A stretch of DNA of 64,000 nt from an uncultured Desulfobacteraceae bacterium (GTDB taxonomy: Bacteria > Desulfobacterota > Desulfobacteria > Desulfobacterales > Desulfatirhabdiaceae): the NCBI GenBank assembly GCA_903953895.1, contig CAJBLH010000217.1:62001-126000 (forward strand), given 5' to 3'. The first letter of the stretch is position 1; every line of letters begins with the position of its first letter. Made by a program: the position numbers and the translations under genes. Shown in pieces: positions 55,269 to 61,880 of the stretch. Under the pieces are notes generated by a model. It did no database searches. It was given only the letters and a program-made list of their open reading frames with translations, and was not told the DNA's origin.

Positions 55269-56888
55269 ATGACAAACATGAAGTTAAGCACCAAATTGAT
55301 CGGTGGATTTTTGATCGTGGCGGTTATCTCTGGCCTCATCGGCGGTGTGGGATTTTGGTCCATTAATGTGGCGACCACCGCCCAGCATCAAGCTGCTGAA
55401 ATATTTCTGCCGAGTATTTATGGATTGGGAATTATCAACGAAGGCCAGACAGCCATCGCACTGGCGGAAAGAACCCTTTGTTTTGAACATGACCCTGAAA
55501 TTGTCAAACGCCAATATGTCAACCTGGATGCCGCATGGAAACGCATTAATGAAGGCTGGAAGATGTATGAACCACTGCCCCAGTCTCCAAACGAAGCGAT
55601 TGTATGGAAAAAACTTGTTCAGGAATGGGACGGATGGAAAAAATCGCATCAGGAAATTCTTTCGCTGGTTCAAAAAGGTGACATGGAGGCTGCCAGAGCT
55701 TTAAATTTTGGAAAAACCCGAGACCTTTTTCAGAAAAACGCCAAGCTGATCGACGACATCATCGACATCAACACCAAAAACTCCAAAGAAACTGATGAGA
55801 CTTTCATCAAAACCGCAGGAAATATCAAACTGGCTTTTGGACTTTTGATCGTCATCGGCGTTGCTGTTTCGGTTTTTCTGGGAATCTATCTTTCGCTTTC
55901 GATCACCCGTTCACTGAATCGTGTCATCGGCGGACTGACAGAAGCCTCTGAACAGGTATCGTCGGCAGCCGCAGAGGTTTCCTCTGCATCCCAGTCCCTG
56001 GCCGAAGGCGCATCAGAGCAGGCGGCATCCGTGGAAGAGACGTCGTCCTCTCTGGAAGAGATGTCCTCCATGACCCGACAGAACGCCAGCAACGCCGGTC
56101 AGGCGGACGTCCTCATGAAACAGGCCAACCAGGTGGTCAACAAAGCCAATGCATCCATGGTGCAACTGACCGCATCCATGCAGGAAATCACAAAAGCCAG
56201 CGAGGAAACATCTAAAATCATCCGTACCATCGATGAAATCGCGTTTCAGACCAATCTTCTGGCCCTGAATGCGGCCGTGGAAGCTGCCAGAGCCGGGGAA
56301 GCCGGCGCCGGATTTGCGGTTGTGGCCGACGAGGTCCGAAATCTGGCCATGCGCGCCGCTGATGCCGCCAAAAACACGGCGGCATTGATTGAAGGAACTG
56401 TTACAAAAATTTCGGATGGTACCATACTGGTCAAATCCACCAACGCCGCCTTTACGGAAGTGGCCGGTAACGTCGGCAAAGTGGGCGAGCTGATCGGAGA
56501 GATCGCGGCAGCTTCCCAGGAGCAGGCCCAGGGGATCGAGCAGGTAAACATTGCGGTAACGGAAATGGATAAGGTCACTCAGCAGAATGCCGCCACAGCC
56601 GAACAATCGGCCGCTTCCTCCGAAGAGATGAACGCCCAAGCCGAAGAGTTGAAAAGTTTTGTCGCCGATCTGGCGGGCATTGTGGGCGGAACCGCCGCCG
56701 TGTCGGCCGGCAGGCTTCGATCCCCCAACCCGATGAGACCTGCCGGACAGACCCGACAGGCGCCCCGGAAAGCACTGGCCGTCGTCAGGAAACCCGCCAA
56801 GGGGAAAACCCTGACGCGCCACCGGTCTAAAGAGGTCAATCCCAACGACATTATTCCCATGGATGAGGATGACTTCAAAGATTTTTAA
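55269..56888 (+). CDS. Methyl-accepting chemotaxis protein with 4HB-type sensor
   Basis: 539 residues (AAAGGAGAG upstream of the ATG). TM1 is at about 8-32, the periplasmic four-helix-bundle sensor at about 33-185, and TM2 at about 188-210. The signalling domain carries the canonical [18 protein letters not shown], then [20 protein letters not shown]. The tail [17 protein letters not shown] is similar to that of the preceding MCP. It is followed after about 25 bp by the soluble receptor-like gene. Confidence 0.92.
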
Positions 56889-56913
56889 CCTGAAACGCCA
56901 ATACCGAACGAAG

Positions 56914-59031
56914 ATGGGATATTCATCGACCATGATCATTTCCGCTCTTAAAAACTGGAATAACCGCACCAACGCCGCTTCTTCGCCGTCATGGCGGGAC
57001 CGACTGCTGGGCGCCAACCAAATTTTGCACGAAATGGCCGCAAGCACGGAAGGTGAATTTATCCAGCTCGGGGAGAAACTTCAGGAATTTTATTTTCGTA
57101 CTAAAGGACTGTCCGAACTCTCTTCCCAGGTGGCTAAATGTTTGTCCGGCGAAGAATTGAAGCAGAATATGGACGGGCTCCAGACCGTATTCGATCAGGT
57201 TCAGGAGCAAGATGAGCTGTCCGGAAAAGGCATCGCCGTTCTTACTTCCCTGCTAAGCCGCTTTGAAACCATCATCGGCCGGCTAAGCCGGTTCGATCAT
57301 ACCATCCGCAATCTGAATGTGCTGTGCAATTTCATCAAAATCGAAAGCGCCCGGTTGGGAAGCCGGGATACGGGCTTTAACGCCCTCGGAGAGCAGGTCC
57401 GAAAGCTTGCCGGCGATATCACCACAAAATCAGCCGAACTGCTGCATCACTCGCAGAATATAGCGGAGATGATCCGTCAGGGGCTGCAACGAATGTCGGA
57501 TTTTGGAGAAAAACAACAGGGTCAGGCCCGTTTGATCCTGGATCAGGCGGTTCAAAACCTGGCGGACATGACCCGGCACCACCAGAGTTCATCTGTAACG
57601 CTGGCCGAGATCGCCACCCGCTGGAAGCGTATTTCACAAAGCATCGGTGAAGTGGTGGCGTCCATGCAGTTTCATGATATCACCCGCCAGCGTCTGGAAC
57701 ATGTCCGCGATGCGCTGCGGGATGTGGGAGAAAAAATCGGTCCGGCTGATTTGGCTGAAACCGCTGAAAACACTATTAAACTCCGGCTTCTTTTTCAAAA
57801 GCGTATCGAGAGCAATCCCCAGACCCTTTCCAGACTGGCCGAAGCCATCGTTCCCTGCCAGGTGCAATCCGTTCAATTGAAGGATGCGAACACGGATATG
57901 TTTTCCGCTGTGGGCCGGATCATCGACAACCTGAAACGGATTGCTTCCGAAGTAACCGTTATGGCCGGAGAAATGAAAATGCTGGCCGGCGGTGGCGGCC
58001 AGAAGGAAGAATCGTTTCTATCGGAACTCGAAAAAAAATTGTCTTCGCTGGCCGATGCTCTTACCAGTTATGGAGAGATCAACCGGCAGTGGTCTGCTTC
58101 CATGGAAGTGATCACCGCCAAAGCCGGGAATATGACCGTCTTTATCCATGAGATTGACAAGATCGGGATTCAGATGCGGATGGTCTCGCTAAACGCCAGT
58201 ATCCATGCGGCCCATCTCGGACAGGAGGGTGCTGCACTGGGCATTCTGGCCGAATCGATCAGCCGGTTATCAAACGAAACTTCTCGGGAAATCGACGCCA
58301 TTTCCGATGGCCTCAGAGCTGTCATGGCGGAAGCCGGAGCCTTTGACTTCCACCGAACAGCACTGCCTGAAGAAATCTCGTCAACCGATCGCGCCCACCG
58401 AGCCCGACAGAGTCAAGAAATCGAATTGTCGGCGCAGATCGAAAAAATGATCGCCCCGCTTCAGCAAATGGATCAAAATGTTTCCGACCTTCTGAATCGC
58501 ATCGACCATGATGCCCAAGCCCTGACCCAAAGCATCGATACAACAATCCAGGGCATTACCGTACATAAAAAAATAAGCGCGGAAATTCATAAAGTCATCA
58601 CCGAGCTGGAATCCATGGTCGCAAAAATGCACGCCCTGTGCCCTGCCCCCGCCGGGCACAGCACAGGAAAAGAGTTGGCGGACATGGCCGATCGGTATAC
58701 GATGGAAAGGGAACGCGAGATTCATCATGCCATTGCCGGAACCGCCGCTGTCCTCACCGCAGCAGCCGCTGTTCCGGAAATGACGGCCCTGGATCAGGCA
58801 CCGGAAACCTCGACAGACAATATCGAATTTTTTGATGATTTTCTGTTTGCCGATACGGCAGCGCCGGAAACCGCACAGACCGATGGCAAGACTTCCCCGC
58901 CTGAACCGGAAGCTCAGGAAATCCTGACTGAAACGACATCGCTGGAAGCCCATGCGGAGGCTGAACCCACGGAAACTCAGCCGGAAGCACAAGCCGACGA
59001 AGATCTCGGAGATAACGTAGAGTTATTTTAA
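56914..59031 (+). CDS. Soluble receptor-like chemotaxis protein with CheZ-like motif
   Basis: About 705 residues with no membrane segment. ATG 56914 is preferred over an upstream ATG inside the previous gene; 56932 is possible. It is coiled-coil rich throughout. Around residue 250-262, SMQFHDITRQRLEHV resembles the CheZ catalytic FQDLTGQ motif (Asp and Gln retained). Around 415-455, IGIQMRMVSLNASIHAAHLG, then QEGAALGILAESISRLS, aligns with an MCP hairpin tip, but the conserved Glu and Arg of NAAVEAAR are both His. The C-terminal about 100 residues are acidic and Pro/Glu/Thr-rich. Probably a divergent signalling scaffold or phosphatase for this chemosensory pathway. Confidence 0.65.
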   Translation: MGYSSTMIISALKNWNNRTNAASSPSWRDRLLGANQILHEMAASTEGEFIQLGEKLQEFYFRTKGLSELSSQVAKCLSGEELKQNMDGLQTVFDQVQEQDELSGKGIAVLTSLLSRFETIIGRLSRFDHTIRNLNVLCNFIKIESARLGSRDTGFNALGEQVRKLAGDITTKSAELLHHSQNIAEMIRQGLQRMSDFGEKQQGQARLILDQAVQNLADMTRHHQSSSVTLAEIATRWKRISQSIGEVVASMQFHDITRQRLEHVRDALRDVGEKIGPADLAETAENTIKLRLLFQKRIESNPQTLSRLAEAIVPCQVQSVQLKDANTDMFSAVGRIIDNLKRIASEVTVMAGEMKMLAGGGGQKEESFLSELEKKLSSLADALTSYGEINRQWSASMEVITAKAGNMTVFIHEIDKIGIQMRMVSLNASIHAAHLGQEGAALGILAESISRLSNETSREIDAISDGLRAVMAEAGAFDFHRTALPEEISSTDRAHRARQSQEIELSAQIEKMIAPLQQMDQNVSDLLNRIDHDAQALTQSIDTTIQGITVHKKISAEIHKVITELESMVAKMHALCPAPAGHSTGKELADMADRYTMEREREIHHAIAGTAAVLTAAAAVPEMTALDQAPETSTDNIEFFDDFLFADTAAPETAQTDGKTSPPEPEAQEILTETTSLEAHAEAEPTETQPEAQADEDLGDNVELF

Positions 59032-59038
59032 AAGAGGT

Positions 59039-59395
59039 ATGAATATGAATCCATTTGAAATTATAGAATCACCCGATCAAATCCACCTGCAGGTCAGCGG
59101 CGACATCTCCGTTCAGAACGCTCAGGCCTGTCTGGAAATCCTGCGGGTTTTCCAGCGCAGCGAAAAACCTCTGCTGCTCGATCTGAACGGTGTCACCTCC
59201 GCAGATATATCCTTTCTGCAGTTGATCTGCTCGCTTCACCGCACCTGCCTGAAGGCCGGCCAGAACCTGACGATATCGGGAAACATGCCGGATACCCTCA
59301 AAACAATTCTGGAAACAGCCGGCTATAGAAGGCCGAAAGCCTGCTCACAGGGTGGAGATAACCCCTGCCTGTGGTCATGGAGGGATGAATCATGA
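59039..59395 (+). CDS. STAS-domain protein
   Basis: 118 residues (59045 is an alternative ATG). Anti-sigma-factor-antagonist fold: QIHLQVSGDISVQNAQACLE, LLLDLNGVTSADISFLQLIC, AGQNLTISGNM. The Ser of ADISFL is at the phosphorylated position of SpoIIAA-type proteins. Its stop overlaps the cheY start (ATGA). In this operon it may be a phospho-regulated adaptor for the CheA pathway. Confidence 0.8.
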   Translation: MNMNPFEIIESPDQIHLQVSGDISVQNAQACLEILRVFQRSEKPLLLDLNGVTSADISFLQLICSLHRTCLKAGQNLTISGNMPDTLKTILETAGYRRPKACSQGGDNPCLWSWRDES

Positions 59396-59757
59396 GCAAA
59401 GTGATCATGACCGTTGATGATTCCGCCAGCGTCCGCCAGATGGTCAGTTTCACCTTAAAGGATGCGGGCTATGATGTTGTCGAAGCCGTGGACGGCCAGG
59501 ATGCTTTAAGCAAAGTCAACGGCCAGGCCCTGAACATGGTCATCACCGACCTGAACATGCCGAATATGGACGGTATCGGACTGATCAAGGCGCTGCGGGC
59601 CCTGCCCGAGTGCAAATTCATCCCCATCGTCATGCTGACAACGGAATCGCAGGCGGAAAAAAAGATGGAAGGAAAAGAGGCGGGCGCCACTGGCTGGATC
59701 GTCAAACCCTTTAAACCGGAACAACTCATTGCGGTTGTAAAGAAGGTACTCGGATGA
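59392..59757 (+). CDS. cheY: Chemotaxis response regulator CheY
   Basis: 121 residues, a single receiver domain. Acidic pocket D9/D10, phospho-acceptor D53 (ITDLNMPNMDG), T83 (MLTTES) and K105 (VKPFKP) are all present. The start overlaps the STAS stop, and the stop overlaps the cheA start, so translation is tightly coupled. It would accept phosphate from CheA and act on the flagellar motor or another target. Confidence 0.93.
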   Translation: MSKVIMTVDDSASVRQMVSFTLKDAGYDVVEAVDGQDALSKVNGQALNMVITDLNMPNMDGIGLIKALRALPECKFIPIVMLTTESQAEKKMEGKEAGATGWIVKPFKPEQLIAVVKKVLG

Positions 59758-61880
59758 TGGATAACCACAGGGAAGCTTTCAAGGAAGAAGCGCACGAGCT
59801 GCTCACCGAGCTGGAAACCGCGCTGCTGGAACTGGAAAGAACGCCTGACGATGATGAAATTATCGGGCGGGTGTTCCGTGCCATGCATACCATCAAAGGC
59901 TCCGGCGCGATGTTCGGATTCGACAGGGTTGCTGCCTTCACCCATGATGTGGAAACGGTTTACGATCGGGTCCGCACGGGAAAAATTTCCGTTACCAAGC
60001 CTCTGATCGACCTGACGCTGTCTGCCTGTGATGAAATTCTGAAAATGATCGATGACACGGGGGAGGGCGAAGCCGAAGACGCCGTCATCACGGAGGCGAT
60101 CACCAAATCCTTCCGGAACATGCTGACAGCTCCCGAAATTTCTTCCGACACCGACATCGATACCGCACCATCCGCCATGGCGACGTCCAACGAACCGCCG
60201 GTGAACCGGAACGAAATCACCTACCGCATCCGGTTTCGTCCGGAACCCGCCATTTTCGCTACCGGAACCAATCCCACCCTGCTGCTCAACGAACTTCGGG
60301 ACCTGGGCCCCTGCGATATCCTGGCCAATACAGACAGCATCCCTTTTCTGAGCGATGTAGACCCCGAACTCTGTTATACGGGCTGGGATATCATTTTAAC
60401 CACGACCCGCGATGAAAACGCCATTCGGGATGTGTTCATTTTTGTGGAAGATTCCTGCGACCTGCATATCGATGTGATCGATGAAGGCCGCATGATCGAT
60501 TCAGAGTCGGATTACAAAAAACTGGGTGAAATCCTGGTCGAGCGGGGCGATCTGGATGCCGACAAGCTGAAAGCGGTGCTGGACGGGCAGAAACGGATCG
60601 GGTCCCTGCTGGTGGACTCCGGCATCGTCAGCGATGATCAGGTGCAGGCGGCACTGGCCGAACAGCAGCATATCCGGGAAAAACGCCAGAAGCGCCAGAT
60701 TCTTGAAACCACTGCCAGTATCCGCGTGCCTGCGGAAAGACTCGATAATCTGGTCAATATGGTCGGAGAACTGGTGACCGTGCAATCGCGCCTCAGCCAG
60801 CTTTCCGCCCGGTTCAACGACCTGTCGCTGATTCAGGTGGCGGAAGAAGTGGAACGCCTGACCGCAGAACTTCGCGACAATACGATGAGTATCCGGATGC
60901 TTCCCATCGGCGCCACGTTCAGCCGGTTCGAGCGCCTGGTCCGGGATCTTTCGATGGATCTGGGCAAAGAGATCACCCTGATTACCGAGGGCGCTGAAAC
61001 CGAACTCGACAAAACCGTGATCGAAAAATTGAATGATCCGCTCATCCACCTGATCCGAAACAGCATCGACCACGGCATTGAAAAACCGGAGGTCAGAATG
61101 GCGGCCGGCAAACCGGCGCAGGGGACGGTGAATCTGTCGGCAGAGCATTCCGGCGCCAGTGTGTTTATCCGCATCAGCGATGACGGGGCCGGACTCGATC
61201 CCGAGGTCATCCGCGCCAAGGCTGTGGAAAAAGGGCTGATTGCATCCGATGCCATGCTGACCGAAAAAGAAATTTATTCCCTGACCTTGATGCCGGGATT
61301 TTCTACGGCAACAACCATTACCAATGTTTCGGGCCGCGGTGTGGGGATGGATGTGGTAAAAAAGAGCATCGACGCCCTGCAGGGTTCCATCGAAATGGTC
61401 AGTAAAAAAGGTGTGGGAACAACGATCACCCTGAAACTGCCCTTGACCATGGCCATTATCGACGGCCTGCTGGTTCAGATCGAAGACGTTCTCTACATCA
61501 TGCCCCTGGCCGCCATTGAGGAATGTGTGGAACTGACCCGTGAGGATGTCGCCCACGCTCACGGAAAACATATGGCCAGCATCCGGGGGGAAATCGTGCC
61601 CTACATCCGGCTTCGGGAAATGTTCGCCCACGGCGGCGCCACACCGGAAATCGAGCAAATCGTCACCGCCAGAATCGACGGCAACCGGGTGGGGTTTGTG
61701 GTGGATCAGGTGGTCGGCCAGCATCAGACTGTGATCAAATCGATGAGCCGGATGTACCGGGATATCGAGCATATATCCGGCGCTACAATTCTGGGAGACG
61801 GCAATGTGGCACTGATCCTTGATCTATGCAAACTGGCCCAACAAGCTGAAATTTTAGAAAAACAGGCAAATCAGGAGTAG
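59754..61880 (+). CDS. cheA: Chemotaxis histidine kinase CheA with tandem MshEN-like repeat
   Basis: 708 residues. The Hpt domain has His45 (AMHTIKGSGAMFGFD). A P2-like region follows at about 155-250. Then two adjacent 24-residue repeats at 256-279 and 281-304 (KLGEILVERG..., RIGSLLVDSG..., each ending L-x2-Q) resemble the MshEN c-di-GMP motif. Dimerisation P3 (RVPAERLDNLVNMVGELVTV), N-box NDPLIHLIRNSIDHG, G1 DDGAGLD and G2 GRGVGMDVV are intact, and a P5 CheW-like domain closes the protein. It autophosphorylates under receptor control. Overlaps cheY by 4 bp. Confidence 0.93.
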   Translation: MMDNHREAFKEEAHELLTELETALLELERTPDDDEIIGRVFRAMHTIKGSGAMFGFDRVAAFTHDVETVYDRVRTGKISVTKPLIDLTLSACDEILKMIDDTGEGEAEDAVITEAITKSFRNMLTAPEISSDTDIDTAPSAMATSNEPPVNRNEITYRIRFRPEPAIFATGTNPTLLLNELRDLGPCDILANTDSIPFLSDVDPELCYTGWDIILTTTRDENAIRDVFIFVEDSCDLHIDVIDEGRMIDSESDYKKLGEILVERGDLDADKLKAVLDGQKRIGSLLVDSGIVSDDQVQAALAEQQHIREKRQKRQILETTASIRVPAERLDNLVNMVGELVTVQSRLSQLSARFNDLSLIQVAEEVERLTAELRDNTMSIRMLPIGATFSRFERLVRDLSMDLGKEITLITEGAETELDKTVIEKLNDPLIHLIRNSIDHGIEKPEVRMAAGKPAQGTVNLSAEHSGASVFIRISDDGAGLDPEVIRAKAVEKGLIASDAMLTEKEIYSLTLMPGFSTATTITNVSGRGVGMDVVKKSIDALQGSIEMVSKKGVGTTITLKLPLTMAIIDGLLVQIEDVLYIMPLAAIEECVELTREDVAHAHGKHMASIRGEIVPYIRLREMFAHGGATPEIEQIVTARIDGNRVGFVVDQVVGQHQTVIKSMSRMYRDIEHISGATILGDGNVALILDLCKLAQQAEILEKQANQE

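What the first reader, a model, noticed from the sequence alone, without database searches (positions are those of the whole stretch)
60519..60665. Tandem MshEN-like repeat inside CheA, between P2 and P3
Residues 256-279 and 281-304 each fit the 24-residue pattern R/K-L/I-G-x2-L-V-x2-G-x2-x4-L/V-x3-L-x2-Q that defines the c-di-GMP-binding MshEN half-motif of type II secretion and MshE ATPases. Here the two copies are joined by a single residue instead of the usual five. If functional, this CheA could be gated directly by c-di-GMP or a related ligand. If not, it is a helical linker that mimics the pattern. I cannot tell which from sequence alone.
Basis: partly seen in the sequence, partly recalled or inferred. 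Interest (0 to 1): 0.6.

Follow-up and report, generated by a model that had tools for sequence, protein, structure and literature searches.

The report
c-di-GMP-receptor-like module inside CheA kinase
The chemotaxis kinase CheA of this bacterium carries, just before its dimerisation domain, a compact version of a known c-di-GMP-binding module that many related CheA kinases also carry, which hints that a biofilm and motility second messenger may act directly on the kinase, although binding has not been shown.

Summary
They are not a chance helical linker: a profile of 42 such CheA linkers has PilF, PilB and MshE chains as its first 14 PDB hits (E 1.4e-24 to 1.7e-4), and hhalign against 12 ATPase MshEN tandems gives 98.5%. 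The tandem occurs in 121 of 171 CheA proteins gathered here by similarity, 83 of them with a one-residue spacer; the 14 non-CheA tandems seen have 5 or 6. By residue class, the published c-di-GMP contact positions are filled in both halves of the window protein. The Pfam MshEN model does not match it. Wang et al. 2016 already say in one phrase that MshEN occurs with CheA; the 2023 CheA domain survey, in the parts I read, does not list it. The predicted fold has the four expected helices, but Foldseek did not return MshEN. So: a real MshEN_N-type module in a compact form common in CheA; c-di-GMP gating is plausible, near even odds, and untested.

The parts
59754..61880 (+). CheA histidine kinase, 708 aa, P1-P2-tandem module-P3-P4-P5
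   Evidence: ORF; Pfam Hpt, H-kinase_dim, HATPase_c, CheW
59772..60047 (+). P1 (Hpt), residues 7-98, with His45 in HTIKGSG, the likely phospho-acceptor
   Evidence: Pfam; position
60210..60482 (+). P2-like ferredoxin-type domain, residues about 153-243
   Evidence: AlphaFold model; VIA (1u0s CheA P2 Z 7.1, but other ferredoxin-like chains score alike)
60519..60590 (+). MshEN half-motif I, residues 256-279; predicted helices 257-264 and 269-278
60591..60593 (+). one-residue spacer, Lys280 (K in 71 of 83 spacer-1 CheA)
60594..60665 (+). MshEN half-motif II, residues 281-304; predicted helix 282-288 and start of helix 294-321
60666..60716 (+). predicted continuation of the fourth helix (residues 305-321) that joins the module to P3
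60714..60893 (+). P3 dimerisation domain, residues 321-380
   Evidence: Pfam; VIA 1b3q
61035..61448 (+). P4 ATP-binding domain, residues 428-565
   Evidence: Pfam
61464..61847 (+). P5 CheW-like domain, residues 571-698
   Evidence: Pfam
59392..59757 (+). CheY-type single receiver protein directly upstream
   Evidence: Pfam Response_reg
59039..59395 (+). STAS-domain protein upstream
   Evidence: Pfam

Best explanation
Residues 256-304, with the long helix that follows, form a compact MshEN_N-type (GSPII N-subdomain) four-helix module where other CheA proteins have a P2-P3 linker. By analogy with MshEN the module keeps the paired pocket: K256/L257/G258 with V297/L301/Q304, and R281/I282/G283 with L272/L276/Q279. 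It most likely binds one c-di-GMP. Binding would stiffen or re-angle the module's last helix, which runs to the P3 dimerisation helices, and so change how P1-P2 reaches the P4 kinase domain, giving c-di-GMP a direct input to chemotaxis signalling. Shown here: homology, position, conservation, predicted helix layout and c-di-GMP signalling domains in the genome. Inferred: binding itself, the pocket geometry with a one-residue spacer, and the effect on the kinase.
For: Homology to MshEN domains: phmmer PilF 8.4e-9 (several stretches summed) and MshE 1e-3; profile 1.4e-24 to 1.7e-4 for the 14 best PDB hits, all PilF/PilB/MshE; hhalign 98.5%. In 83 spacer-1 CheA proteins the published ligand-contact positions are among the best kept: Gly3 100% in both halves, Gln24 99% in half II and 73% in half I, where its neighbours 22 and 23 are nearly free, and Lys/Arg at position 1 in 81% and 73%. 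All contact classes filled in both halves: 42 of 83 spacer-1 CheA with R/K/L at position 1, 56 of 83 if P is allowed; over all spacers 78 of 121, against 0 of 24200 within-motif shuffles (this control tests order, not selection). The window protein passes without P. Lys at position 1 is compatible with tight binding: PilF GSPII-B has K and L there and binds at 6 nM, and GSPII-C, with P in motif II, binds at about 500 nM (PMC11731258, passages). MshEN_N alone, without the C-terminal subdomain, binds at 0.35 uM (PMC5013675, section 12). The genome has 12 GGDEF and 5 PilZ matches. Two AlphaFold runs on overlapping alignments give the same four helices.
Against: The spacer is 1, not 5; I know of no solved MshEN with a spacer of 1. 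Foldseek and VIA did not return MshEN for the model (pTM 0.49). Half-motif I has Asp at position 11 where MshEN has a hydrophobic residue (64% D in the spacer-1 family); the non-binding XpsE has a charged residue at the same position, I19R, among its listed changes. Gln at the end of half I is replaced in 27% of spacer-1 relatives and is lost with its neighbours in three Magnetococcales CheA (spacer -2). Loss of Gln and of Lys/Arg could not be tied to each other on the tree. No binding data exist here.
Confidence: 0.45

Rival explanations
1. The module descends from MshEN_N but no longer binds a nucleotide; it is a structured helical hinge or docking surface that sets the distance and angle between P1-P2 and P3-P4, or binds a protein partner. 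Members of the family that do not bind c-di-GMP are known (XpsE, PilF GSPII-A).
For: Spacer lengths in CheA range from -2 to 16, which fits a scaffold at least as well as a fixed pocket. The first Gln is variable. D11 and R9 in half I and E23 in half II are common in CheA and are not MshEN contacts. One relative, L204, has three motifs at one-residue spacing, like a helical repeat. Foldseek did not return MshEN. Non-binding members: PMC5013675 section 12, PMC12002112 abstract and passages.
Against: Gln24 of half II at 99% and Gly3 at 100% are hard to explain by packing alone, and 78 of 121 proteins keep all contact classes in both halves. XpsE has lost several of these very residues, among them the glycines and the second Gln.
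Confidence: 0.44
2. The module binds another cyclic dinucleotide, for example 3',3'-cGAMP, which some Desulfobacterota make with Hypr GGDEF enzymes (recalled, not from a call).
For: MshEN binds cGAMP, several hundredfold more weakly than c-di-GMP (KD 3.3e-4 M, PMC5013675 passage).
Against: Nothing in the sequence points away from guanine at both sites; Hypr enzymes were not looked for here.
Confidence: 0.07
3. The pattern is a chance resemblance of an amphipathic helical linker.
For: Pfam PF05157 does not match, and Foldseek found no MshEN.
Against: Shuffles do not reach the score; the significant profile hits are all MshEN-type proteins; present in 121 of 171 CheA gathered.
Confidence: 0.03

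Closest known systems
MshEN / GSPII N-terminal subdomain of MshE (5htl), PilF GSPII-B and -C, PilB
   Same: Two 24-residue motifs in tandem with the same contact classes; four helices predicted.
   Different: Spacer 1 instead of 5 (5 in MshE; 7 between the first two motifs of PilF GSPII-C, read from the alignment); no MshEN_C subdomain follows; Asp at position 11 of motif I; joined to CheA P3 by a long helix.
MshEN-CheA associations mentioned by Wang et al. 2016 (PMC5013675, section 12 read)
   Same: MshEN found together with CheA; the paper suggests c-di-GMP involvement.
   Different: The paper gives one phrase; which CheA and which spacers are in a supplement I could not read. CheA with spacers 4-12 seen here may be what they found.
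DUF4388 (PF14332)
   Same: Weak profile similarity: 34 of 42 linkers at E up to 1, best 3.7e-4; window linker aligned to positions 34-76 of 122.
   Different: Window linker is below the curated cut-off (17.6 bits against 25).
Canonical five-domain CheA (E. coli, T. maritima)
   Same: P1, P2-like, P3, P4, P5 in order.
   Different: In those the P2-P3 link has no such module (recalled; Berry et al. 2023 speak of long linker regions, passage).

Membership tests
MshEN N-subdomain (c-di-GMP receptor) | two copies of the 24-residue motif in tandem | tested here: met
   contact classes filled in both halves; four conservative-to-moderate departures from the strict consensus
MshEN N-subdomain (c-di-GMP receptor) | significant profile similarity to known MshEN domains | tested here: met
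   PDB profile search; hhalign
MshEN N-subdomain (c-di-GMP receptor) | five-residue spacer between motifs | tested here: not met
   one residue, K280. PilF GSPII-C, a binder, has 7 between its first two motifs (alignment), so five is not strictly required, but 1 is outside the range I saw in known binders
MshEN N-subdomain (c-di-GMP receptor) | four-helix bundle fold | tested here: inconclusive
   four helices at the expected places; pTM 0.49; MshEN not returned by Foldseek or VIA
MshEN N-subdomain (c-di-GMP receptor) | binds c-di-GMP | not testable with these tools
   needs purified protein
Pfam MshEN PF05157 (whole domain) | score above the curated cut-off | tested here: not met
   not reported for the CheA or the linker at max E 10 (HMMER filters drop most weak matches); not among the 25 of 35 families shown for 42 linkers
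Pfam MshEN PF05157 (whole domain) | MshEN_C subdomain after the helices | tested here: not met
   in the model the module runs by one helix to P3, with no strands between
CheA | P1, P3, P4, P5 core domains | tested here: met
   Pfam

The most novel reading that the evidence does not exclude
A large part of the CheA kinases of this phylum, and relatives in several other phyla, are direct c-di-GMP receptors through a compact MshEN module that Pfam does not see, built into the P2-P3 linker, so that the second messenger tunes the chemotaxis kinase itself rather than the motor or an adaptor.
Probability: 0.4. Interest if true: 0.8.

Novelty: new variant of a known kind. Interest (0 to 1): 0.52.

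Why it matters
Links between c-di-GMP and chemotaxis that I know of act on the motor, on CheY-like proteins or on adaptors of the methyltransferase (recalled; a reference to such an adaptor was seen). A receptor module inside CheA would put the messenger on the kinase itself, in bacteria whose chemotaxis is little studied. The module is common in this phylum: 118 of 296 genomes have a listed match of 63 bits or more to the linker-plus-P3 profile (my count of the listed handles), and 40 of 40 lower-scoring matches that I picked from that list are tandem CheA. Yet Pfam misses it, and it is absent from the parts I read of the 2023 CheA domain survey. It offers a fragment of about 80 residues for a simple binding test, and it asks how far the spacer of a c-di-GMP pocket can shrink.

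Tried and rejected
Pfam PF05157 on the CheA and on the linker: not reported; not among the 25 of 35 families shown for the 42 linkers. Five CheA proteins with the canonical spacer are missed too, so I do not count this against homology. The best Pfam matches to the window linker (DUF4388, FumaraseC_C, MltA) are below cut-off.

Foldseek on the 83-residue model returned 6 weak chains, none MshEN; VIA on 8 chains gave Z at most 3.0. I treat the fold comparison as inconclusive. For the longer model VIA showed P3 and ferredoxin-like P2 matches but nothing for the module.

Co-occurrence with c-di-GMP synthesis: GGDEF in 80 of 80 tandem-CheA genomes tried (80 of the 118) against 11 of 20 genomes without an A3 match (20 of the 25). 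But 19 of those 20 have no PF02895 (CheA dimerisation) match (that model is not fully sensitive), so the contrast probably reflects the absence of chemotaxis. Rejected as evidence.

Correlated loss of contact residues: Gln24 of half I against Arg/Lys of half II gives Fisher p 0.001 over 80 related rows, but on the tree at most 2 of 6 independent pairs go the same way (sign test not significant); against Arg/Lys of half I, p 0.36. Not used. That tree is a FastTree of 167 of the 171 cores with 56 of 164 inner branches poorly supported; it needs 9 changes for tandem against none and 6 for spacer 1 against other tandems.

Bias to state: the 171 CheA proteins were gathered by similarity to this CheA (the best 80 of 441 confirmed candidates), to its linker or to profile A3, which contains the module, so 121 of 171 is not a prevalence. 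The cut-off of 20 points lets in at least one doubtful row (L036, 16 points). Of the 14 non-CheA tandems, 11 come from loci fetched with PF05157, which favours the canonical spacer. The 40 loci were picked by me from the listed matches, not at random. Two of the 29 loci counted (L152, L157) are the same genes as L092 and L093.

Rows dropped: of 54 tandem CheA rows, A1 used 42, with the window in place of its own copy L088 (left out: 3 with spacer -2, 8 with other spacers, and L116, nearly a copy of L117); A2 used 39, A3 40. A4 used 12 of 14 (the two with spacer 6 left out).

Odds: on rereading, the XpsE change at the position where CheA has Asp made me lower the c-di-GMP reading from 0.47 to 0.45 and the novel case from 0.42 to 0.40, and raise the hinge rival from 0.42 to 0.44.

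Papers: 27 hold the words MshEN and CheA (20 listed, several of them chance matches). Passages of eight were read; in those only Wang et al. 2016 pairs MshEN with CheA. Four others of the listings (PMC7288161, PMC9061725, PMC8316039, PMC5544727) were not opened. Further searches. Only open-licence PMC papers are held; supplements were not available.

Full report
What is there. The ORF at 59754-61880 (+) is a complete CheA of 708 residues with Hpt, dimerisation, ATPase and CheW domains. Upstream lie two receptors (53196 and 55269), a 722-residue protein with a lower-scoring receptor-signalling match (44 bits, cut-off 34.6), a STAS protein and a CheY; downstream a metallo-beta-lactamase-fold protein, a CheR and another receptor cut by the window end. 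The finding's coordinates are exact: 60519-60665 encode residues 256-304, two 24-residue units joined by Lys280. Scored against the published motif both units are complete, and shuffles do not reach the pair score (0 of 2000, 0 of 500, 0 of 5000).

Homology. A single-sequence search against the PDB finds PilF (E 8.4e-9, summed over several stretches) and MshE (1e-3). A profile of 42 CheA linkers has 14 MshEN-type chains first, from 1.4e-24 (PilF, four stretches) to 1.7e-4; the next hit is at 0.095. hhalign to 12 ATPase MshEN tandems gives 98.5% probability with a four-residue gap at the spacer. Pfam PF05157 is not reported, nor for five CheA proteins with the canonical spacer. CheA has only the N-terminal part of that domain, since in the model the last helix leads on to P3.

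How common, and how variable. Of 106 distinct CheA ORFs in the first set, 54 score 21 or more on the pair scale and 52 score 17 or less. Over all loci fetched, 121 of 171 distinct CheA proteins carry the tandem at a cut-off of 20: spacer 1 in 83, -2 in 3, and 2 to 16 in 35. By record title the spacer-1 form occurs in Deltaproteobacteria/Desulfobacteraceae-type MAGs, Seleniivibrio and a Deferribacteraceae MAG, Spirochaeta and Brucepastera, a KSB1 MAG and Idiomarina; other spacers occur in Nitrospira, a Planctomycetota MAG, Magnetococcales and Gammaproteobacteria (spacers). Among 296 genomes of the phylum, 118 have a listed match of 63 bits or more to the linker-plus-P3 profile; weaker matches were not listed (handles transcribed and counted). 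I picked 40 matches from the lower part of that list (about 63 to 108 bits): 40 of 40 are CheA with the tandem, with spacers 1 (14), 7 (6), 5 (5), 4 (5), 6 (3), 2 (3), 3 (2), 9 (1) and 11 (1). The 29 best matches from other genomes that became loci read by eye as spacer 1. The 14 non-CheA tandems in the loci have 5 (12) or 6 (2). So one residue is the commonest CheA form in this sample but not the only one, and it is not peculiar to this protein.

Which residues are kept. In the 83 spacer-1 CheA proteins the positions that touch c-di-GMP in MshEN are among the best conserved: Gly3 (100% and 100%), Gln24 of half II (99%, the highest of all positions in bits), Leu21 (96% and 82%), Gln24 of half I (73%, otherwise mostly K, R, H), Lys/Arg at position 1 (81% and 73%, otherwise mostly Pro). 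Core positions 5, 6 and 10 of half I are as well kept (90%, 99%, 89%), so conservation alone does not separate ligand from fold. Positions 22 and 23 of half I, next to Gln24, are nearly free (0.8 bits each against 3.3); in half II position 23 is itself conserved (Glu 76%). Work on PilF, seen in passages, shows that Lys or Leu at position 1 gives tighter binding than Arg, that GSPII-C with Pro in motif II binds at about 500 nM, and that a truncated GSPII-A regains binding when both Gln residues and the Arg at the start of motif II are put in (PMC11731258; PMC12002112). By that extended rule the window protein qualifies in both halves. So do 42 of 83 spacer-1 CheA, or 56 of 83 with Pro allowed, and 78 of 121 over all spacers with Pro allowed, against 0 of 24200 within-motif shuffles. 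The second tandem CheA of this genome (G000:C13) does not qualify in half I, where His replaces Gln. Features common in CheA but not MshEN contacts are Arg9 (76%) and Asp11 (64%) in half I and Glu23 in half II. Asp11 departs from the MshEN consensus, and the non-binding XpsE has a charged residue at the same position (I19R).

Structure. Two AlphaFold runs, on the linker alone and on P2-linker-P3 with overlapping alignments, give the same helices at 257-263/264, 269-278, 282-288 and 294-321. This is the order of MshEN_N with a tight turn at Gln279-Lys280-Arg281. The fourth helix goes on for some 17 residues past the motif. Confidence is moderate (pLDDT 80 and 73; pTM 0.49 and 0.42), and neither Foldseek nor VIA returned MshEN. 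Whether the bundle closes as in MshEN is open. In MshEN one guanine is held by residues at the end of helix 2 and the start of helix 3 (Leu25, Leu29, Leu39), the two elements that the spacer joins, which makes a short spacer conceivable (inference).

How it may work. CheA autophosphorylation needs P1 to reach P4 (established knowledge). Here the arm that carries P1 and P2 hangs on a structured module whose last helix leads to the dimer core. A ligand that locks this module could change that reach, so c-di-GMP would raise or lower kinase output; the direction cannot be guessed. The genome has 12 GGDEF and 5 PilZ matches. This is the best-supported mechanism with a ligand; the version without a ligand, a hinge or docking module, is almost as likely.

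What is known and what is not. Wang et al. 2016 state in one phrase that MshEN is found with CheA and suggest c-di-GMP involvement (section 12 read; supplement not available). The broad CheA survey of Berry et al. 2023 treats P2, CheY-like and CheC/CheX as auxiliary domains (section 11 read), and term searches for MshE and T2SSE in its main text find nothing. In the searches, and the passages opened, I saw no paper that describes the compact form or tests c-di-GMP binding by a CheA; subscription papers are not in that library, and some listed papers were not opened. I therefore call it a new variant of a known kind.

Noticed in passing
L204 (G240:C277:36400-38000): A CheA with three consecutive 24-residue motifs, each separated by one residue, before P3: a 25-residue helical repeat.
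   Followed up: partly
L017, L018, L019 (Magnetococcales): CheA in which the end of half-motif I, including its Gln, and the spacer are missing (pair spacing -2), while half II keeps its Gln.
   Followed up: partly
G000:C13:77595-77864 (L150): A second tandem-motif CheA in the same genome, with a degenerate first half (His for Gln).
   Followed up: partly
G000:C217:53884-53958 (L151), about 8 kb before the window's first base: A 491-residue ORF with a canonical five-residue-spacer MshEN pair.
   Followed up: no
window 56863-59031: 722-residue protein with a receptor-signalling match of 44 bits between the receptors and the STAS-CheY-CheA genes; its role is unclear.
   Followed up: no
window 59039-59395: STAS protein directly before CheY and CheA; no separate CheW gene was found among the ten neighbours scanned.
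   Followed up: no
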